Assembly (NCBI GenBank): GCA_010365115.1
Contig: JAAFGX010000039.1
Coordinates: forward strand, 1-36,419
Source of the DNA: Paludibacter sp.
GTDB taxonomy: Bacteria; Bacteroidota; Bacteroidia; Bacteroidales; Paludibacteraceae
Length of the DNA: 36,419 bases
Direction of reading: 5' to 3'
Below are positions 2,401 through 33,265 of the stretch, piece after piece. The notes under the pieces are model-generated. The model saw nothing but the letters and a program-made list of their open reading frames with translations, was not told the origin of the DNA and searched no databases. Each line of letters starts with the position of its first letter. Position 1 is the stretch's first letter. The translations under genes were made by a program, and so were the position numbers.

Positions 2401-2454
2401 TTTTTAAATTTTTATAAATGATTATACCTAATGCTTTTTCTCGAAAAGCGGTTG

Positions 2455-2484
2455 CAAAGGTAATTAATAATTGTCAATTATCAA
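2455..2484 (-). promoter_or_regulatory. Bacteroidota-type promoter of rpsP
   Basis: On the minus strand the -7 element TACCTTTG (2462-2455) fits TAnnTTTG. A TTG (2484-2482) lies exactly 19 bases further upstream, matching the -33 element. The TTG is supplied by the heptamer tandem array at 2474-2502. Confidence 0.65.
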
Positions 2485-2502
2485 TTATCAATTATCAATT
2501 AT
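2474..2502. repeat. 7-bp tandem array (4 copies) at HU/SPOR gene stop
   Basis: Four perfect heptamers. On the minus strand they read ATAATTG four times. The HU/SPOR stop codon TAA lies inside the first unit. The array runs toward rpsP and overlaps its -33 promoter region. Confidence 0.85.
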
Positions 2503-3398
2503 TTGCACAGTACCCAGGCAGTTTCAAATCTACTGTCGGTTTTTCGCAAGTTTTCCATAAATTCGATGGCCTGATTGCGGTCGGAGAAAGATTGGATGGC
2601 AACACGGTAGGTTTTTACAGGTGGTAAGACCTGTGCATTAGCAAAATTATTTTCCAAAAGAGATTTACAAAATTTATCAGCACTTTTCTGATCTCCCAGA
2701 CTTGCCACAATTACATGAAAGTCATAAGATTCTGTTGGTTGTTGACTTGGAGTTACTAAAGAAGTTGTATCTGTTTGTGAAGTTGTGACTGAATCAATTG
2801 CAACTGAAGGAGCATTTAAGAAAGATAACGAAGCAAAATTAGCATAATCAGCCTGACGAACATCGCTTACCGGATTCGAAAATAAAAATAATCCACCAAA
2901 TAATAGACTGGCTGCTGCATATTTGTAAAAAACCGAAGTCCGGAATTTTATCGTGATTTTTCCTGATTCTTTATCGGTGCTTGAATTTCGTGTTCTGATA
3001 TATAAATCTGATAATCCGTAATTTTGTGTTAAATAATCAGCTTTTTCGATGGGTTGAAACTCCAGATTGCCGGATTCGTTTTTTAGAACAACTCCTAAAT
3101 TTCCAAGGCGAACCTGACCCGATGATTTTAAGCGATAATGGATAGCTTCTACTTCCTTATCAATATATTCCATTGCCAATCGATAGCTGATGCGTTCGGA
3201 GCGTGAGATTTCGATAGCCAATAATCCATCGGCATGATGCATTAATGGATTAAAACCAATTGTTGCAAGAGGAGGAGTGATGCGATCAGGAAGAAGTTGA
3301 GCCGATTGCATTTGAACCACAAATCCACCCAATCCGGGTACAACCGCAAAATCGTGATGAGCTAAAAGTTTTTCGATATGTTGACAGAATTTTTCCAC
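2499..3398 (-). CDS. HU-CCDC81 and SPOR domain-containing protein
   Basis: This 299-residue protein is typical of Bacteroidota. Residues 1-135 form the two HU-like CCDC81 domains (VVPGLGGFVVQ at 19-29; GNLGVVLKN at 99-107). A membrane segment follows at about 157-174, then a Ser/Thr/Gln-rich linker and a C-terminal SPOR domain at about 225-299. SPOR domains bind peptidoglycan lacking stem peptides at division sites. The topology suggests a cytoplasmic DNA-binding-like head tied to a periplasmic wall-binding tail, a possible chromosome-envelope link (inference). The start at 3398 matches family N-termini. A -7 element sits only five bases upstream, so the transcript may be leaderless. The stop codon falls within a heptamer array. 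Confidence 0.93.
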   Translation of the reverse strand: MEKFCQHIEKLLAHHDFAVVPGLGGFVVQMQSAQLLPDRITPPLATIGFNPLMHHADGLLAIEISRSERISYRLAMEYIDKEVEAIHYRLKSSGQVRLGNLGVVLKNESGNLEFQPIEKADYLTQNYGLSDLYIRTRNSSTDKESGKITIKFRTSVFYKYAAASLLFGGLFLFSNPVSDVRQADYANFASLSFLNAPSVAIDSVTTSQTDTTSLVTPSQQPTESYDFHVIVASLGDQKSADKFCKSLLENNFANAQVLPPVKTYRVAIQSFSDRNQAIEFMENLRKTDSRFETAWVLCK

Positions 3399-14767: not shown

Positions 14768-15796
14768 TCAAAAATTCAACAATTCTTCTACTAAAATTTT
14801 GTTTTCTTCGGGTGTTCCAACTGTAATTCTAATACAACCAAGGCATAACGATACTGTGTTGCGGTTTCGAACAATAATGCTTTTGTTGACTAAATATTGA
14901 TAGACTGCATTGGCATCCTCCACTTTAATTAGAACAAAGTTGGCATCGGTGGGATAAATTTTCTTTACAAAAGGTAATTTTTCAAGAGCGTTTAATAATA
15001 CGGTTCTTTCCACTAATAATGTATTCACCCAATTTTTTACTTGACCAGCATTTCCTAATGCTAAAAGTGCTTGTTTTTGAGTAAGGATATTGATATTGTA
15101 TGGATATTTTATTTTATTAAGAATTCCAATAATTTCAACAGAGGCAAACGCCATTCCTAGTCTAATTGCGGCACTTCCCCATGCTTTTGAGAATGTTTGC
15201 AAAATGACCAGATTTGGAAATTGAGTCAGTTTTTCTGAAAAACTTGCTTCACTTGCAAAATCAATATATGCTTCGTCCAACACTACAATTCCTTCAAATG
15301 AAGTCAATAGTTTTATAATTTCATCTCGGCTTAAACTGTTTCCGGTTGGATTATTCGGAGAACAAAGCCAGATAATTTTAGTGTACAAATTTGTTGCCGA
15401 CAATAATTTGTCAGCTGAAAACTGAAAATCATCATCCAATAAAACTTTTCGATATTCTACATCATTTATAGCAGCACTAACTTTATACATTCCGTAAGTT
15501 GGTTCTATAGCCACCACATTGTCGATGCGTGGTTCGCAAAAAGCACGATACAATAAATCAATGGGTTCATCGCTTCCGTTTCCAAGAAAAATATTCTCAG
15601 CAGGAACGTTTTTAATTTTCGAGATTTGCTCTTTCACTTCCCATTGTAAAGGATCTGGATATCGATTGAAAGGAGCATTATAAGGATTTTCATTTGCATC
15701 CAAATAAACGGAAGCTTCCCCTTTAAACTCATCTCTGGCACAAGAATAAGGTTGTAGGGAGCGTATATTTTCACGCAATAATTTTTCTATATTCAT
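14768..15796 (-). CDS. hisC: Histidinol-phosphate aminotransferase
   Basis: A 342-residue class I/II PLP aminotransferase. It converts imidazole acetol phosphate plus glutamate to histidinol phosphate. The N-terminal LDANENP (32-38), SPNNPTG (146-152), DEAYIDF (174-180) and the PLP lysine in [13 protein letters not shown] (Lys204) are typical of HisC. Length is normal. It follows hisD across a 46-base spacer filled with degenerate heptamers. hisB, hisG and the other pathway genes are not in the window. Downstream is an inositol-monophosphatase-family gene. Confidence 0.95.
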
Positions 15797-15798
15797 TC

Positions 15799-15847
15799 TA
15801 TAATTATCTATAAACTAATTACTATCGACTATAAACTACCAACTATC
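15799..15847. repeat. Degenerate 7-bp tandem array (7 units) from hisD stop to hisC start
   Basis: On the minus strand the units are GATAGTT, GGTAGTT, TATAGTC, GATAGTA, ATTAGTT, TATAGAT, AATTATA. The hisD stop TAG lies inside the first unit and the array ends two bases before the hisC ATG, so it fills the whole spacer. Confidence 0.7.
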
Positions 15848-17159
15848 TTCTATGACTGCTATGTCTTTCTTCCACTTCTTTTTCTTCAATTAAACGAACT
15901 TTTACAGCATTACTATGTGCCTGCAATTCTTCGCTTTCGGCCATAATTATTATAGCATTGCTCATATTGGTAAGACCTTCTTGTGTAATTTGCTGGAAAG
16001 TGACTTTTCGGATAAAACTATCTAGATTTACTCCGCTATAAGCTTTAGCATAACCATTTGTAGGCAATGTGTGGTTTGTTCCGGAAGCATAATCACCAGC
16101 ACTTTCTGGTGTGTAATTTCCAAGAAAAACAGAACCTGCATTGATGATATTTGCAGCTACTCCCATATAATAGTGAGTAGAAATAATCAAATGTTCAGGT
16201 GCGTATTCATTGGTCATTTCAACAGCTTCTTCCAATGTTTTCAGAACTATTATCTTGCTATTTGCGAGCGCTTTTCTGGCAAATTCTTTTCGAGGAAGCT
16301 GTTCAAGTTGAATTTCAATTTGTTCCAAAACCGGGGCTACAATTTTTTCACTTACTGTTATCAAAATAGATTGACTGTCCACACCATGTTCGGCTTGCGA
16401 AAGCAAATCTGCCGCCACAAAAACAGGATTTGCAGTATCGTCGGCAATTACTTCTACTTCGGAAGGACCAGCAGGCATATCAATGGCAACATCTCTTAAA
16501 GAGACCAGTTGTTTTGCTGCAGTCACATACTGATTACCGGGTCCAAAAATTTTATACACTTTAGGAACCGTTTCTGTACCATAAGCCATAGCTGCAATGG
16601 CTTGTGTTCCCCCGATTTTAAAAATACGATGAATTCCGGCCACTTTAGCGGCATACAAAACAGCAGGATGAATTTTTCCTTCTTTATTCGGCGGTGTGCA
16701 AAGTATTATCTCTTTACATTCGGCAATTTGTGCAGGGATTCCGAGCATTAAAACAGTCGAAAAAAGCGGAGCTGTTCCACCTGGAACATACAAACCCACT
16801 TTCTCAATTGCAATTGCTTTTTGCCAACAGTAAACACCGGGTGAAGTTTGAATTTCAGGTAAATCATGTTGTTGCTCCGAGTGAAATTTCCAGATATTGC
16901 GACGCGCCATTTCTATGGCTTGTTTCAATTGTGCCGAAACCAGTTTGTCAGCTTCTGCAATTTCCTCTTTAGTAACTTCAATTACATCAAGACTTACATT
17001 GTCAAACTTTTGAGTATATTTTTTTATTGCTTTATCGCCATGCGAACGAACATCGTCCAATACTTTTTGTACCGTTTCGAAAAGTGATGTGCTATCATAA
17101 ACCGGGCGGGTAAGCAGCGAAGCCCAATCTTCACGGGGGGGGTATTTTATAACTTGCAT
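15843..17159 (-). CDS. hisD: Histidinol dehydrogenase
   Basis: A 438-residue Zn- and NAD-dependent enzyme that carries out the last two steps of histidine synthesis, from histidinol to histidine. Recognisable blocks: YVPGGTAPLFSTVLML, GPGNQYVTAAKQ, DMPAGPSEV, LLSQAEHG and EYAPEHLII near the active site, and GDYASGTNHTLPTNG. The C-terminal residues are polar and basic (SSHRR), and their codons run into the heptamer array. hisG, normally just upstream in Bacteroidota hisGDC(B) operons, is absent. The preceding gene is a HAD phosphatase 97 bases upstream. No TAnnTTTG is seen in that gap, so read-through from the HAD gene is possible. Confidence 0.96.
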   Translation of the reverse strand: MQVIKYPPREDWASLLTRPVYDSTSLFETVQKVLDDVRSHGDKAIKKYTQKFDNVSLDVIEVTKEEIAEADKLVSAQLKQAIEMARRNIWKFHSEQQHDLPEIQTSPGVYCWQKAIAIEKVGLYVPGGTAPLFSTVLMLGIPAQIAECKEIILCTPPNKEGKIHPAVLYAAKVAGIHRIFKIGGTQAIAAMAYGTETVPKVYKIFGPGNQYVTAAKQLVSLRDVAIDMPAGPSEVEVIADDTANPVFVAADLLSQAEHGVDSQSILITVSEKIVAPVLEQIEIQLEQLPRKEFARKALANSKIIVLKTLEEAVEMTNEYAPEHLIISTHYYMGVAANIINAGSVFLGNYTPESAGDYASGTNHTLPTNGYAKAYSGVNLDSFIRKVTFQQITQEGLTNMSNAIIIMAESEELQAHSNAVKVRLIEEKEVEERHSSHRR

Positions 17160-18823: not shown

Positions 18824-19786
18824 CTATAAGTCACCCTTGGGGGATTTAGGGGGCTTAATTCCCCTCAACAATTCGCCAATTTCCATGCGTTTTTTGCCGG
18901 CAACCTGAACAGATTTCAAATGGATAAAACCATCTGAAAGTGCCATTTTTGCATGTTTTTTTTCATCTGTAACAATTGTTCCAGGAGTTAATGCATGTTG
19001 GATAATTTCTTTATCTGTTTCATAAACTTTCATCAGAATTTGATTCTCCTGATGGGGAAATTGTAATTCAATCCATGCGGTTGGGTAGGGTGACATGCCA
19101 CGAATAAAATTGTATACTTTTTCCACATTCCACTGTAAATCAATCTGACAGGTTTCTTTGAAAATCTTGGGAGCGGATTTTAATTCATTTTCTGATTGAA
19201 TAAATTGAGCTTGATCGATTCCCTCTATTTTATCTTCCATCAATAAATCAACGGTTTTTTTTACCAATTCGGCTCCCATTTCCATCAAATTGTCATGCAC
19301 AATTCCGGCATTGTCGGTTTCTGAAATGGCAATTTTTTCCTGTAAAATTATTTTACCTGTGTCAATTTCGTGTGTTAGGAAAAAAGTGGTAGCGCCTGTT
19401 TCTTTTTCACCGTTGATAATTGCCCAATTGATAGGTGCAGCACCACGATATTGTGGCAGAAGCGATGCATGCAAATTGAAGGTTCCGTAAGTAGGCATGT
19501 TCCATACAACTTCGGGTAGCATGCGAAAAGCAACAACTATTTGTAAATCAGCATTTAAATTTCGTAATTGATCTATAAATGCTTCATTTTTCAATTTCTC
19601 GGGTTGTAAAAGAGGCAGATTTTTCTCTAAAGCATATTGCTTCACTGGCGAGTACTGAATTTTATGTCCACGTCCAGAAGGTTTGTCGGGCATAGTGATT
19701 ACACACACCACATTATACTTGTTTTCAACTAATATTTTAAGGCTTTCCACCGCAAAATCGGGTGTCCCCATAAAAACTATACGCAT
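18824..19786 (-). CDS. fmt: Methionyl-tRNA formyltransferase
   Basis: A 320-residue enzyme that formylates initiator Met-tRNA using 10-formyl-THF. Its N-terminal Rossmann domain begins MRIVFMGTPDFAV. The catalytic residues are Asn104, His106 and Asp142 in FNLHASLLPQYRGAAPINW and THEIDTG. The C-terminal OB-fold domain follows after about 205. The final residues after GELLRGI, namely KPPKSPKGDL, are encoded by a G-rich repeat-like sequence (18827-18856) and look like an added tail. It lies downstream of nadK in the same direction with a short 8-bp array between them, so the two may be co-transcribed. Confidence 0.95.
   Translation of the reverse strand: MRIVFMGTPDFAVESLKILVENKYNVVCVITMPDKPSGRGHKIQYSPVKQYALEKNLPLLQPEKLKNEAFIDQLRNLNADLQIVVAFRMLPEVVWNMPTYGTFNLHASLLPQYRGAAPINWAIINGEKETGATTFFLTHEIDTGKIILQEKIAISETDNAGIVHDNLMEMGAELVKKTVDLLMEDKIEGIDQAQFIQSENELKSAPKIFKETCQIDLQWNVEKVYNFIRGMSPYPTAWIELQFPHQENQILMKVYETDKEIIQHALTPGTIVTDEKKHAKMALSDGFIHLKSVQVAGKKRMEIGELLRGIKPPKSPKGDL
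18827..18865. repeat. G/C-rich repeat overlapping the fmt 3' end
   Basis: The sequence CCCTTGGGGGATTTAGGGGG (18834-18853), with AGGGG/CCCCT as a small hairpin (18848-18852 with 18861-18865), differs sharply from the AT-rich surroundings. Read on the minus strand it encodes the last ten residues of Fmt. I recall similar CCCCCTAAATCCCCC-type repeats, and PPKSPKGDL-type protein tails, in other Bacteroidota; this was not checked. Confidence 0.55.
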
Positions 19787-19813: not shown

Positions 19814-19845
19814 CACATCATCACATCATCATATCATCACATCAT
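19814..19845. repeat. 8-bp tandem array (4 units) after nadK stop
   Basis: The plus strand reads CACATCAT, CACATCAT, CATATCAT, CACATCAT. On the minus strand (ATGATGTG units) it starts in the base right after the nadK stop TAA and runs toward fmt. Confidence 0.85.
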
Positions 19846-20718
19846 TTAATTTCTTTTATCCACTCCCCACAACAATTTGTTTTTAAGTGTATCAAAAAAA
19901 GTGTGGTTCAGTTGTTTTATTATTTTTACGCTGTAATCGGCTTTTGAAAGTCGAAGGATGGTTTTTTGTTCCAGTACTATCGAGCGTCCATCAAGTGCAA
20001 GTAAAAAGCTACGACTTCTGCTGTGAACTTCAAGGTCGATGTTCCAAGAGTCGGGAACAATTAATGGTCTGACATTCAGACTGTGTGATGCAATAGGCGA
20101 AAGTATAAAATTCTCGGTTTGAGGTACTAATAATGGTCCGCCAACACTCATGGAATAAGCTGTAGATCCTGTTGGTGTTGATATTATCAAACCATCGGCC
20201 ATGTATGTGTGTACCATTTTGCCATTTATACTTACATTGATACTAATCATAGACGAACTGTCTTGTTTAAGTATTGCTACCTCATTTAAAGCATAAGGAT
20301 ATTCCAGTTCTGTGCCATCCAATATCTGAACCTGAATTAACGATCTATCTTCAATGGTGTAGTTTTTGTATGTTAACGAATCCAGTGCTATTATAATATC
20401 TTCACTTGGTATATCAGCTAAAAAGCCTAATCGTCCGGTATTAATGCCTAAAATAGGGATTTGTTTTCGACCAATTCGTGCTGCCGAACTTAGAAATGTT
20501 CCATCACCGCCGATGCTTAATACAAAATCAGCTTCAAAATCGTCATTTTGAATAATTTCAGTATTTTTCATACAGCAATCTCCATACTCACGAATAAATT
20601 CGAACAATTGGTTGTCCAAAAGAATTGTAGCACCTTTATCGTTGTAATAATTGAATATTACTTTTATATGCGATAAAATCACAGTGCGATAAATATTCCC
20701 GAAAATGGCAATTCTCAT
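19846..20718 (-). CDS. nadK: NAD kinase
   Basis: A 290-residue ATP-NAD kinase that makes NADP+. It shows the GGDGTF motif (70-75, Asp72), NTGRLGFL, and the glycine-rich PTGSTAYSMSVGGPLL that binds NAD. Length is normal for the bacterial PpnK family. It is divergent from pdxJ across a 350-base gap, an arrangement shared by many Bacteroidota. fmt follows on the same strand after an 8-bp array. Confidence 0.95.
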   Translation of the reverse strand: MRIAIFGNIYRTVILSHIKVIFNYYNDKGATILLDNQLFEFIREYGDCCMKNTEIIQNDDFEADFVLSIGGDGTFLSSAARIGRKQIPILGINTGRLGFLADIPSEDIIIALDSLTYKNYTIEDRSLIQVQILDGTELEYPYALNEVAILKQDSSSMISINVSINGKMVHTYMADGLIISTPTGSTAYSMSVGGPLLVPQTENFILSPIASHSLNVRPLIVPDSWNIDLEVHSRSRSFLLALDGRSIVLEQKTILRLSKADYSVKIIKQLNHTFFDTLKNKLLWGVDKRN

Positions 20719-21984: not shown

Positions 21985-22680
21985 ATGAATTTAATGCTTA
22001 TTTTGCAAGCAAACACGAATCTTGCACAAACTATCGCTACAACAGTTCCTGAACAGCCCGAAATGAGTTTATGGAAAATGGCGATCTACGGTGGTCCAAT
22101 TATGATAGTTTTAGCTCTCATGTTGGCCTTTGCTGTTTATTTATTTATTGAACGGTTGGTAACTTTAAAACAAGCATCCGAAGAAGATAAATCGTTTATG
22201 AATAGAATTAAAGATTATATTTACGATGGAAAAATTGATGCTGCAATGAAACTGTGTCGTGATACGAATACGCCGACTGCGAGAATGGTAGAAAAAGGGA
22301 TCAGTCGGTTGGGTCGTCCAATGAGTGATGTGTTGGTAGCCATTGAGAATGTCGGAAATTTGGAAATAGCTAAACTAGAAAAAGGATTAGTCATAATGGC
22401 TTCCATTTCGGGTGGTGCGCCCATGCTTGGATTTTTGGGAACAGTAACCGGGATGGTAACTACTTTTTATAATATGTCATTGAATAATAGCGGAACCATT
22501 CAACTCAGCGATTTATCAACCGGAATGTATCAAGCAATGGTAACTACTATTGGCGGTTTAATTGTAGGGATTATTGCTTATTTTGCCTATAATTATTTAG
22601 TTTCCAGAGTCGATTCTGTTGTTCGTATTCTTGAAGCGAAAACGATGGAATTTCTCGATTTATTGAATGAACCCGCTTAA
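21985..22680 (+). CDS. exbB: MotA/TolQ/ExbB proton channel family protein
   Basis: A 231-residue inner-membrane protein with three membrane segments (about 35-52, 131-153 and 173-196). The family core is GGAPMLGFLGTVTGMVTTF followed by STGMYQAMVTTIGGLIVGI, in which Thr and Pro/Gly residues line the proton path. With ExbD it forms the pmf-powered motor that drives TonB, or TolR-type partners. The first and fourth residues are both Met; the start may be either. exbD follows after 83 bases that begin with a heptamer array at the stop codon. Confidence 0.94.
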   Translation: MNLMLILQANTNLAQTIATTVPEQPEMSLWKMAIYGGPIMIVLALMLAFAVYLFIERLVTLKQASEEDKSFMNRIKDYIYDGKIDAAMKLCRDTNTPTARMVEKGISRLGRPMSDVLVAIENVGNLEIAKLEKGLVIMASISGGAPMLGFLGTVTGMVTTFYNMSLNNSGTIQLSDLSTGMYQAMVTTIGGLIVGIIAYFAYNYLVSRVDSVVRILEAKTMEFLDLLNEPA

Positions 22681-22715
22681 ATAATTCATAATTCACAATG
22701 CATAATTCATAATGC
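22681..22715. repeat. 7-bp tandem array (5 units) directly after exbB stop
   Basis: Units: ATAATTC, ATAATTC, ACAATGC, ATAATTC, ATAATGC. The array starts in the base after the exbB TAA and lies in the exbB-exbD spacer. Confidence 0.8.
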
Positions 22716-22763
22716 ATTGTCTACAATACATATTTCACAATTACTAAATTGTAAATCAAAATT

Positions 22764-31513: not shown

Positions 31514-33265
31514 TTATTCGTGAGCACCCATTTTCAGCATGCTAACCTCACGTTCGCTGAGAAAACGATATTTTCCACGAGTTAAGTTCTTTTTTGTCAG
31601 TCCGGCAAAGTAAACTCTATCCAAACGAATAATTTTATAACCTAATTTTTCGAAAACACGACGAACAACCCTGTTTTGACCCGAGTGAATTTCAATACCC
31701 ACTTGTTTTAAATCACCTTCTTTTACAAATTCCAATGCGTCAGCTGCGATTTTTGTGTCATCCAATTCCACGCCTGCCATTATTGTATTGAAATCAGCTT
31801 CTTCCAAAGCTTTATCCAATGTTACATGGTAGATTTTTTTCTTATCATATTTTGGATGAGTCAGTTTTGAAGCAAGGTCACCATCATTGGTAAGGAGTAG
31901 AACACCGGTAGTATTTCTGTCTAAGCGTCCAACCGGATAAATGCGTTCACTGCAAGCATTTTTTACTAAATCTAATACTGTTAAACGATCATGAGTATCT
32001 TCCGAAGTAGTTACACAGTCTTTTGGTTTGTTAAGAAGTAAATATACCTTGCGTTCTGATTGAACAGTTTGATCGTGGAACTTAACTTTATCAGTCAGCA
32101 ATACTTTTACTCCCATTTCTGTTACAATTTCTCCATTAACAGAAATCACACCGGCCTGAATATATTCATCCGCTTCTCTACGTGAACATATCCCTGCATT
32201 GGCAAGAAATTTATTCAAACGAAGTGGTTTGGTAAGGTCAACAATTGTTTTTTTGAATTCTAATTGTTTTTTATTGCTGTATTTCGAATTCGGATCGTAA
32301 TTGTCATCGGTTCTGCGTGTAGGTTTGCGGAAAGTTACTCCATCTTTTTTGTTGTCAAAGCGGGTTTCTGTAAATTCGGATTTACGGGGTTCGCTTGGCT
32401 TTGAAAAACTCAGTTTGCCATCGCGTGGTTCATCATCGTTGCTTTGAGAACTTCTTCCATATGTTTTCTCCCCATTGCTGTCAAATCTATCTTCCCATGG
32501 TTTCGATTCACCAGTTGATGGTTTTCCTTCTCTTTTTTCCCATGGTTTTTTATCGCCAAATGAAGGACGACTATCTCTGTTTTCGTAAGGTTTACGATCA
32601 CCGTATGCAGGTTTGCTGTCGCGGCTTTCCCATGGTTTTTTTGGAGCAAACGAAGGACGTCCTTCTTTGCTGTCGTATGGTTTACGATCACCAAATGCTG
32701 GTCTATCACCTTTGCTTTCGTATGGTTTACGATCGCCGTATGCTGGTTTATCACCTCGATTTTCCCAAGGTTTTTTGTCACCATAAGCTGGTTTGTCACC
32801 TCGGTTTTCCCAAGGTTTTTTGTCGCCATAAGCTGGTTTATCGCCTCGGTTTTCGTAAGGCTTGCGTTCACCATATGCCGGTTTATCACCTCTGCTTTCG
32901 AACGATTTTTTTGGAGAAAATGTAGGTCTGCCTTCATTATTATCAAATGGCTTTCTGTCGCCATAAGATGAACCACGGCTTTCAAATGATTTTTTTTCGC
33001 CGAATGAAGGGCGGTTGTCACGACTATCGTATGGTTTTCTGTCGCCATATGATGGGCGACTGTCATCTTTTCTTTTGTAATCTGAACTGTCTGATTGACG
33101 ATTATCGTCGCGAGACGATTTTCCTGTTCCTGATTTTGCAGCTCCTCTGGAACCTTTCAATATCGATTTTACATCGCGTTTCTCAAACGATTTACCATCA
33201 CGGCCGGCACCCGAATTCGATTTTGAGCTCGAACTTCCATGCCATTTTTCATTGTTTGTTTTCAT
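31514..33265 (-). CDS. Pseudouridine synthase (RluB/RsuA family) with long repetitive N-terminal region
   Basis: A 583-residue protein. The C-terminal part is a complete RsuA/RluB-type synthase: an S4 RNA-binding domain (about 346-395) and a catalytic domain with GRLDRNTTGVLLLTNDG (446-462, catalytic Asp449), converting uridine to pseudouridine in 23S or 16S rRNA. Residues 1-340 are low-complexity and very hydrophilic; residues 66-257 hold 13 tandem units of about 15 residues (RGDKPAYGDKKPWEN type). No signal peptide. The extension is probably disordered and RNA-binding. Length is roughly double the ~240 residues of E. coli RluB. A near-consensus -7 element (GACCTTTG) lies at about 33293-33300 on the minus strand. 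Confidence 0.93.
   Translation of the reverse strand: MKTNNEKWHGSSSSKSNSGAGRDGKSFEKRDVKSILKGSRGAAKSGTGKSSRDDNRQSDSSDYKRKDDSRPSYGDRKPYDSRDNRPSFGEKKSFESRGSSYGDRKPFDNNEGRPTFSPKKSFESRGDKPAYGERKPYENRGDKPAYGDKKPWENRGDKPAYGDKKPWENRGDKPAYGDRKPYESKGDRPAFGDRKPYDSKEGRPSFAPKKPWESRDSKPAYGDRKPYENRDSRPSFGDKKPWEKREGKPSTGESKPWEDRFDSNGEKTYGRSSQSNDDEPRDGKLSFSKPSEPRKSEFTETRFDNKKDGVTFRKPTRRTDDNYDPNSKYSNKKQLEFKKTIVDLTKPLRLNKFLANAGICSRREADEYIQAGVISVNGEIVTEMGVKVLLTDKVKFHDQTVQSERKVYLLLNKPKDCVTTSEDTHDRLTVLDLVKNACSERIYPVGRLDRNTTGVLLLTNDGDLASKLTHPKYDKKKIYHVTLDKALEEADFNTIMAGVELDDTKIAADALEFVKEGDLKQVGIEIHSGQNRVVRRVFEKLGYKIIRLDRVYFAGLTKKNLTRGKYRFLSEREVSMLKMGAHE
32495..33070 (-). repeat. 45-bp in-frame tandem repeat in the pseudouridine synthase gene
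   Basis: Thirteen units encode G-D-x-P-A/S-Y/F-G-D-x-K-P-Y/W plus a charged spacer. Units 6 and 7 are identical in protein sequence. The period is a multiple of three, so long shadow ORFs appear in the other frames on both strands, none of which is coding. Confidence 0.9.

What the first reader, a model, noticed from the sequence alone, without database searches (positions are those of the whole stretch)
22681..22715. Tandem arrays that begin exactly at stop codons: a recurrent spacer type
Four spacers share one layout. A gene ends, and a 7- or 8-bp tandem array starts in or right after its stop codon and runs toward the next co-directional gene. The cases are HU/SPOR to rpsP (ATAATTG x4, stop inside unit 1), hisD to hisC (degenerate GATAGTT x7, stop inside unit 1), nadK to fmt (ATGATGTG x4, starts one base after the stop) and exbB to exbD (ATAATTC x5, starts one base after the stop). 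Three have period 7 and related sequence (ATAATTG, ATAATTC, GATAGTT). The positioning is not explained by hairpins or ordinary leaders. Possible causes are slippage seeded at stop codons or a role in translational coupling or ribosome recycling. The sequence observation is direct; the roles are inference.
Basis: partly seen in the sequence, partly recalled or inferred. Interest (0 to 1): 0.7.

Follow-up and report, generated by a model that had tools for sequence, protein, structure and literature searches.

The report
Short DNA repeats behind stop codons
In this bacterium, likely a Paludibacter, and in related species, short tandem DNA repeats of seven or eight letters tend to start directly behind the stop codons of genes, with sequences that change from species to species, and they are likely products of slipped DNA copying rather than a conserved signal.

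Summary
The arrays are real: three of the four beat all of 2000 shuffles, the hisD-hisC one is weak alone. In 1.385 Mb sampled from this genome, period 7 makes up 51 of 90 non-genic arrays of period 4-13. In co-directional spacers of this genome and congeners, 31 of 72 period-7/8 arrays start within 8 nt of the upstream stop, 12.7 expected by sliding; room explains the short spacers (20 of 45 against 17.6) but not the long ones (11 of 27 against 1.6-2.6). Orthologous spacers in congeners carry unrelated arrays in the same slot: 17 of 58, against 44 of 761 in general. Stop-abutting arrays have more G than C on the coding strand 35:7, others 22:25. A like position and direction preference is in print for G-rich heptamers of Xanthomonas and Nostoc (PMC4692102), so this is a new variant of a known kind. 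The likely cause is replication slippage, filtered by what messages tolerate and perhaps biased by transcription past the stop. Translational coupling and seeding by the stop codon are not supported. Why arrays in long spacers sit at the stop is unsolved.

The parts
2461..2502 (-). tandem array ATAATTG, six units with the last ones degenerate; stop TAA of the HU/SPOR gene lies inside unit 1; it runs into the promoter-like TACCTTTG in front of rpsP
   Evidence: 0 of 2000 shuffles
2499..3398 (-). upstream gene: HU-CCDC81 domains 1 and 2 plus SPOR
   Evidence: Pfam PF18174, PF18175, PF05036
1852..2400 (-). downstream gene rpsP (30S ribosomal protein S16)
   Evidence: NCBIfam NF011094 above cut-off
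15821..15845 (-). degenerate array TAGTTGG/TAGTTTA/TAGTCGA; stop TAG of hisD is its first triplet; fading copies towards 15797
   Evidence: period-7 score reached by 28 of 2000 shuffles; the same slot holds clearer arrays in congeners
15843..17159 (-). hisD, histidinol dehydrogenase
   Evidence: TIGR00069 above cut-off
14768..15796 (-). hisC, histidinol-phosphate transaminase
   Evidence: TIGR01141 above cut-off
19814..19845 (-). tandem array ATGATGTG, 4 units, first base directly behind the stop of nadK
   Evidence: 0 of 2000 shuffles
19846..20718 (-). nadK, NAD kinase
   Evidence: NF002521 above cut-off
18824..19786 (-). fmt, methionyl-tRNA formyltransferase
   Evidence: TIGR00460 above cut-off
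22681..22717 (+). tandem array ATAATTC/ACAATGC, about 5 units, first base directly behind the stop of the exbB-like gene
   Evidence: 0 of 2000 shuffles
21985..22680 (+). MotA/TolQ/ExbB family proton channel gene
   Evidence: PF01618
22764..23180 (+). ExbD/TolR family gene
   Evidence: PF02472

Best explanation
The arrays are short tandem satellites with units of mostly seven bases, likely born by slipped DNA replication, that sit directly behind stop codons at the same slots with different units in different species of one genus. Shown: period 7 dominates, coding DNA is poor in arrays, the slot behind the stop is reused by unrelated units, stop-abutting arrays have more G than C on the coding strand, and array load differs widely between species. 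Inferred: slippage in steps of seven makes the arrays; the stop codon bounds them because coding sequence upstream cannot be altered, and the leader of the next gene limits them downstream; in long spacers, where room does not explain the position, transcription past the stop (nascent RNA no longer covered by ribosomes, coding strand open) likely favours birth or growth there and gives the G-over-C direction.
For: Period: in a first 0.6 Mb sample, 13 intergenic period-7 arrays against 0.1 in shuffles, period 8 4 against 0.0, every other period from 3 to 13 at most 2; 51 of 90 non-genic arrays of period 4-13 in 1.385 Mb. Position: 31 of 72 within 8 nt of the stop against 12.7 (P 1e-8); 28 of 59 against 11.1 with reliable upstream genes; long spacers 11 of 27 against 1.6 with 25 nt before the start barred and against 2.6 when room also ends before a TAnnTTTG box. 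Slot reuse: 17 of 58 orthologous congener spacers (own removed) have a stop-abutting array, general rate 44 of 761, P 1e-7; units include AGAACAA, TGATGTGG, TAAGCAG, TTAATTC, GGTTAATT, TAGTTTA, GTTTCAC, CAGTGAG, TAGTAGG, AATTAAT, GTAGACC, TAATGTGA. nadK ends at the same residue without extension in 17 of the 18 spacers read, own included, so there the arrays came to an existing stop. Turnover: two congeners 88% identical in DNA differ in the hisD-hisC array by a 14-base block and other gaps; overlapping pattern hits per genome run 0-145 for TAGTT and 0-301 for CAAGA over 48 congeners. Direction: G>C 35:7 at stops, 13:14 in mid-spacer, 9:11 at starts, share 0.49 in array-free spacers behind stops. 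Independent loci from 29 congeners picked by pattern alone: TAGTT reads sense at 8 of 11 stops and 0 of 11 other places in co-directional spacers, Fisher P 0.001. Of seven convergent arrays within 12 nt of a stop, six have G at least equal to C in the sense of that gene.
Against: No replication or expression data. In spacers with under 150 nt besides the array the stop position is what room alone predicts (20 of 45 against 17.6), and barring 60 nt before the start removes most of the overall excess (31 against 26.2, P 0.05). Weak period-7 signal is spread over whole spacers without a clear peak behind stops in this genome. In the filtered period-7/8 set the direction contrast is weaker: 22:6 at stops, 16:11 elsewhere. 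Of the 8 sense TAGTT loci at stops 5 overlap the stop, which favours that direction by definition. The window's own exbB-exbD array has more C than G. The seventh convergent array, abutting both genes, reads C-rich with the nearer one. mutS is present in 11 of 11 genomes tested, array-rich and array-poor alike, so its loss is not the cause. Arrays within a genome and species within a genus are not independent, so P values are guides.
Confidence: 0.48

Rival explanations
1. Room and selection alone: slippage arrays arise anywhere, and only those between a stop and the next leader or promoter survive; direction reflects what mRNA tolerates (G- and stop-rich behind genes, A/C- or A/T-rich before starts). 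There is no mutational bias at stops.
For: Short spacers fit fully (20 of 45 against 17.6). Start-abutting arrays have GC 18% (n 16) against 33% at stops (n 34), and TAGTT arrays before starts are reversed in 7 of 7, as if filtered by the leader. Only 8 of 59 period-7 arrays lie in genes.
Against: Long spacers keep the excess under every zone tried (11 of 27 against 1.4 to 2.6). The direction also appears at convergent gene ends, where no downstream gene is affected (seven arrays only).
Confidence: 0.28
2. Functional RNA element: the arrays bind a protein or tune spacing, transcript stability or termination, as proposed for TAACTGA arrays.
For: Recurrent at the same slots, strand-directed, between housekeeping genes.
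Against: No unit is conserved at a slot, and 35 of 58 congener spacers have no array of score 9 at all; G001 has no non-genic period-7/8 array in 200 kb; of 66 hisD-hisC spacers, period-7/8 arrays of score 9 occur in 10 of 31 with HisD at least 75% identical and 1 of 35 below.
Confidence: 0.1
3. Backup stop codons: arrays are kept because sense units close all three frames behind the stop.
For: Stop-abutting arrays close three frames in sense in 31 of 46 and in antisense in 12 of 46; mid-spacer 17 and 11 of 28.
Against: CAAGA units hold no sense stop codon and are still 12 sense to 0 antisense among those counted; 8 of 29 arrays that begin behind the stop contain no sense stop; arrays overlapping a stop must contain one by definition.
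Confidence: 0.07
4. Slippage seeded by the stop codon itself.
For: Stop triplet in phase with the array in 12 of 48 against 5.5; TAG stops 14 of 48 against 245 of 1677 genes.
Against: All 12 in-phase arrays overlap the stop and may have supplied it; arrays starting behind the stop show no match to their gene's stop (4 of 13 against 4.85); many units hold no stop triplet.
Confidence: 0.05
5. Translational coupling or ribosome recycling element.
For: Co-directional placement.
Against: The gaps are 46-98 nt in the window and up to 281 nt in congeners, while most loci of other families have short gaps; arrays also sit at convergent gene ends.
Confidence: 0.02

Closest known systems
GGGAATC / GGGGA(C/T)T heptamer repeats of Xanthomonas and Nostoc (Rehm et al. 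2015, PMC4692102; passages and sections 10, 11, 16 seen)
   Same: Heptamer tandem arrays, mostly intergenic (89%, 93%, 68% in the three genomes), in Xanthomonas nearer the preceding ORF (28 nt on average) than the next (160 nt), mostly between co-directional ORFs, rarer between divergent ones, variable between close relatives; [quoted passage not shown]
   Different: There one G-rich family per organism able to form G-quadruplexes, and overall strand shares between co-directional ORFs are nearly even in Xanthomonas (30 and 35%; 35 and 35%). Here many unrelated, mostly AT-rich units without spaced GGG tracts (none in the window), so quadruplexes cannot be the general cause. Slot reuse by unrelated units is not described in the sections seen.
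TAACTGA direct repeats of marine Beggiatoaceae, cyanobacteria and five Bacteroidetes incl. Paludibacter propionicigenes (MacGregor 2015, PMC4679880; abstract, passages and sections 7, 9, 12, 15 seen)
   Same: Intergenic heptamers, strand-directed, some overlap the stop of an upstream ORF; stops in all three frames are noted there as the reason why forward arrays sit at ORF ends.
   Different: One unit, mostly within a few nt upstream of start codons; no TAACTGA pair in the window.
Long simple sequence repeats of prokaryotes, heptamers the commonest of 5-11 nt in most genomes (Mrazek 2007; seen only as cited in the two papers above)
   Same: Excess of period 7, tentatively put down to polymerase slippage.
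   Different: The paper itself was not seen, so its treatment of position is unknown to me.

Membership tests
bacterial intergenic heptamer simple repeats | unit length 7 in excess over other unit lengths | tested here: met
   13 against 0.1 in shuffles; 51 of 90 non-genic arrays
bacterial intergenic heptamer simple repeats | mostly outside coding sequence | tested here: met
   51 non-genic and 8 in-gene period-7 arrays in 1.385 Mb that is 85% coding by my gene calls
bacterial intergenic heptamer simple repeats | length and sequence vary between close relatives | tested here: met
G-quadruplex heptamer repeats (GGGAATC type) | GGG tracts in successive units | tested here: not met
   no GGGNNNNGGGNNNNGGG in the window
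G-quadruplex heptamer repeats (GGGAATC type) | G-rich strand is the coding strand downstream of ORFs | tested here: met
   35:7 at stops; the window's exbB-exbD array is an exception
TAACTGA repeats | unit TAACTGA | tested here: not met
   0 pairs in the window with one mismatch allowed
TAACTGA repeats | placed just upstream of start codons | tested here: not met
   the four window arrays lie behind stops; in the pooled sample 12 of 58 period-7 arrays end within 8 nt of a start, 7.4 expected
translational coupling spacer | stop and next start overlap or lie a few nt apart | tested here: not met
   gaps of 46, 59, 83 and 98 nt in the window
phase-variation (contingency) repeat | copy number switches expression between strains | not testable with these tools
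   one genome per species held; no expression data

The most novel reading that the evidence does not exclude
The end of translation is a general hot spot for the birth of tandem repeats in bacteria: where ribosomes leave the message, the open coding strand lets the replication machinery slip in steps of seven, so that spacers grow from the stop codon outward, strand-directed, whatever the unit sequence. The GGGAATC repeats of Xanthomonas and Nostoc and the arrays of Paludibacter would be outcomes of the same process.
Probability: 0.2. Interest if true: 0.75.

Novelty: new variant of a known kind. Interest (0 to 1): 0.47.

Why it matters
Why heptamers are in excess among bacterial simple repeats is open, and quadruplex formation was studied as the special property of the best described ones. 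Here one genus shows the same position and direction preference with many unrelated units that lack quadruplex tracts, and with pattern counts from 0 to about 300 per genome. That makes a mutational cause directly testable by comparing array-rich and array-poor congeners. It also warns annotators that such arrays can shape apparent gene ends.

Tried and rejected
Seeding by the stop codon and translational coupling were tested and not supported. Loss of mismatch repair: mutS in 11 of 11 genomes. Avoidance of Rho sites as the cause of the direction was considered and disfavoured because convergent gene ends lean the same way. Promoter boxes as the boundary: TAnnTTTG lies 3' of the array in 9 of 72 array spacers (307 of 931 co-directional spacers of 30 nt or more hold one) and does not remove the long-spacer excess. 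A position profile of lag-7 matches gave no clear peak at stops in the own genome; in G005 it was highest in the first 40 nt. A congener pair (G009/G031) that looked like a clean array replacement was dropped: their hisD-hisC loci are 99.7% identical while the fmt and nadK loci are about 71 and 68%, which suggests mixed bins. A first nadK-fmt/hisD-hisC comparison read some loci on the wrong strand and was redone. Rfam gave nothing.

Rows left out: arrays at contig edges and a contig piece of N only; HU-rpsP spacers were read for 13 of 17 genus loci, nadK-fmt 18 of 29, hisD-hisC 22 of 26 (L250 dropped as duplicate of L249), exbB-exbD 9 of 9; the exbB paralogues L131, L133, L136 and L138, which also carry arrays, were not counted, 14 of 80 loci without hisC; the own-genome locus L273. 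Gene calls come from my own script (hexamer scores), not a published caller; starts are less sure than stops. Paper searches listed no report of stop-abutting arrays in Bacteroidetes beyond PMC4679880; one search had 617 papers of which 12 were listed, and only open-licence papers are held.

Full report
What is there. The window lies in contig C141 of a 4.79 Mb draft genome. Of the first 14 named relatives listed for its hisD (84-90% identical), 8 are labelled Paludibacter sp. and the rest bear wider names, so the organism is likely a Paludibacter. Three arrays beat all of 2000 shuffles of their spacer; the hisD-hisC one does not stand on its own.

Is it more than chance in the genome? In a first sample (603 kb with the window, 390 spacers) intergenic period-7 arrays outnumber the shuffled expectation 13 to 0.1 and period 8 4 to 0.0; no other period from 3 to 13 exceeds 2. 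In the larger sample of 1.385 Mb (29% of the genome) there are 51 non-genic and 8 in-gene period-7 arrays. The units are many: CAAGAAT/CAAGAGC, TAGTTGG/TAGTTTA, TAATTGA/TAATTCA, GTTTTGC/GTTTCGG, AAAACAC and others, often with a fixed core and a few changing bases. So the length, not the sequence, is shared.

Do they begin at stops? I pooled samples of this genome, G016 (400 kb), G005 (200 kb) and G001 (200 kb; it gave no non-genic period-7/8 array). Of 72 period-7/8 arrays in co-directional spacers 31 start within 8 nt of the upstream stop; sliding each array within its spacer predicts 12.7, or 19.0 if the last 25 nt before the start are barred, or 26.2 if 60 nt are (P 0.05). With upstream genes of at least 150 aa and a good coding score it is 28 of 59 against 11.1. 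The excess has two sources. In spacers with under 150 nt besides the array, room explains it (20 of 45 against 17.6). In longer ones it does not (11 of 27 against 2.6 even when room is ended before a promoter-like box). One array per spacer gives 9 of 19 long ones against 1.1. A smaller group ends at start codons (12 of 58 period-7 arrays within 8 nt, 7.4 expected, P 0.045). A threshold-free profile of lag-7 matches shows weak signal all along spacers, without a clear peak at stops in this genome. As a share of spacers the layout is uncommon: 24 of 497 here, 6 of 136 in G016, 14 of 64 in G005, 0 of 64 in G001.

The same slot in relatives. Orthologous exbB-exbD, HU-rpsP, nadK-fmt and hisD-hisC spacers were read in congeners. 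The slot behind the stop holds other arrays in other species: for nadK-fmt an ATGATGTG octamer here, GGTTAATT octamers in four congeners, TAGTTTA or GTTTCAC heptamers in others, and 15-46 nt without array in five. At score 9 or more, 26 of 62 genus spacers (own included, any position) hold an array of period 7-9, where shuffles of the same spacers give 1.3. With own removed, 17 of 58 have a stop-abutting one; the general rate in the four sampled genomes is 44 of 761. The four slots were chosen because this genome has arrays there, several congeners are close, and the array load of most of these congeners is not known, so this shows that slots are reused, not how often. Outside the genus arrays look rare: of 66 hisD-hisC spacers, 10 of 31 with HisD at least 75% identical and 1 of 35 below reach period-7/8 score 9. 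nadK C-termini stay fixed in 17 of 18 spacers, so there the stop predates the arrays.

Direction. Arrays of period 7-9 that abut a stop have more G than C on the coding strand 35 to 7 (4 ties, 46 in all), mid-spacer ones 13 to 14 (28), start-abutting ones 9 to 11 (20); array-free spacers show no skew behind stops. Restricted to arrays that begin behind the stop it is 20 to 5 of 29. CAAGA arrays are sense in 12 of 12 counted there (co-directional, or convergent and abutting a stop); one convergent CAAGA array 150 nt from its nearer stop is antisense to it. In an independent set of loci from 29 congeners, picked only by the TAGTT pattern on either strand, 22 lie in co-directional spacers: sense at 8 of 11 stops, 0 of 7 at starts, 0 of 4 in between. 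Five of the 8 overlap the stop, which favours the stop-bearing direction by definition; of those starting behind it 3 are sense and 1 is not. Start-abutting arrays are poorer in GC (18% against 33%). In the stricter period-7/8 set the contrast shrinks (22:6 against 16:11), and the window's exbB-exbD array goes against it.

What makes them. Turnover between close species in blocks such as 14 bases, an excess of one period regardless of sequence, and species differences from 0 to 301 overlapping pattern hits point to replication slippage; this is inferred. Median co-directional spacers are 46 nt in array-free G001, 76 here, 87 in G016 and 128 in array-rich G005, as if arrays had widened them; four genomes prove little. 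MutS is present in 11 of 11 genomes tested. Position in short spacers follows from room. Position in long spacers and direction do not; I infer a bias linked to transcription beyond the stop. Convergent spacers speak for the gene that ends rather than the one that follows: of seven arrays within 12 nt of a stop, six read G at least equal to C with the gene they abut and one, which abuts both genes, does not; in G005 C3:40147-40391 two such arrays face each other.

Comparison with print. Rehm et al. 2015 (PMC4692102, sections 10, 11, 16; [quoted passage not shown] MacGregor 2015 (PMC4679880) reports TAACTGA arrays before start codons, with stops in all frames as a limit on their place. The present arrays are a further, multi-unit case of that kind. 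What my searches (partly capped lists, open-licence papers only) did not show in print is slot reuse by unrelated units and the direction preference for units without quadruplex tracts.

Noticed in passing
2401-2460 (minus strand) and upstream of rpsP in congeners (L142-L157): A leader of about 33 nt, CCGCTTTTCGAGAAAAAGCATTAGGTATAATCA, with a TATCTTTGCA-type box before it, is strongly conserved in front of rpsP in the congeners read; no Rfam match in the window. It could be an S16 leader.
   Followed up: partly
L240, L247, L251 hisD-hisC spacers: Some congeners carry a second, longer repeat (of the type AATAACGTGAGCGAAGCGAAC) between the heptamer array and hisC.
   Followed up: no
G000 C50:1-250 and C90:5559-5662; G005 C3 and C77: Nine-base arrays (AAAGTTTAT, GTTGATTAA types) occur beside the heptamers; pooled, 5 of 14 in co-directional spacers start within 8 nt of a stop, 1.3 expected.
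   Followed up: partly
32536-32911: Coding tandem repeats of 45/90 bp in ORF 31514-33265, whose N-terminal half repeats DKPAYGDKKPWENRG; the C-terminal half looks like an RsuA/RluB-type pseudouridine synthase by eye (recalled, not searched).
   Followed up: no
L249 and L250 (G009, G031): Two genomes share a 99.7% identical hisD-hisC locus although their fmt and nadK loci are only about 71 and 68% identical; possibly mixed metagenome bins.
   Followed up: partly
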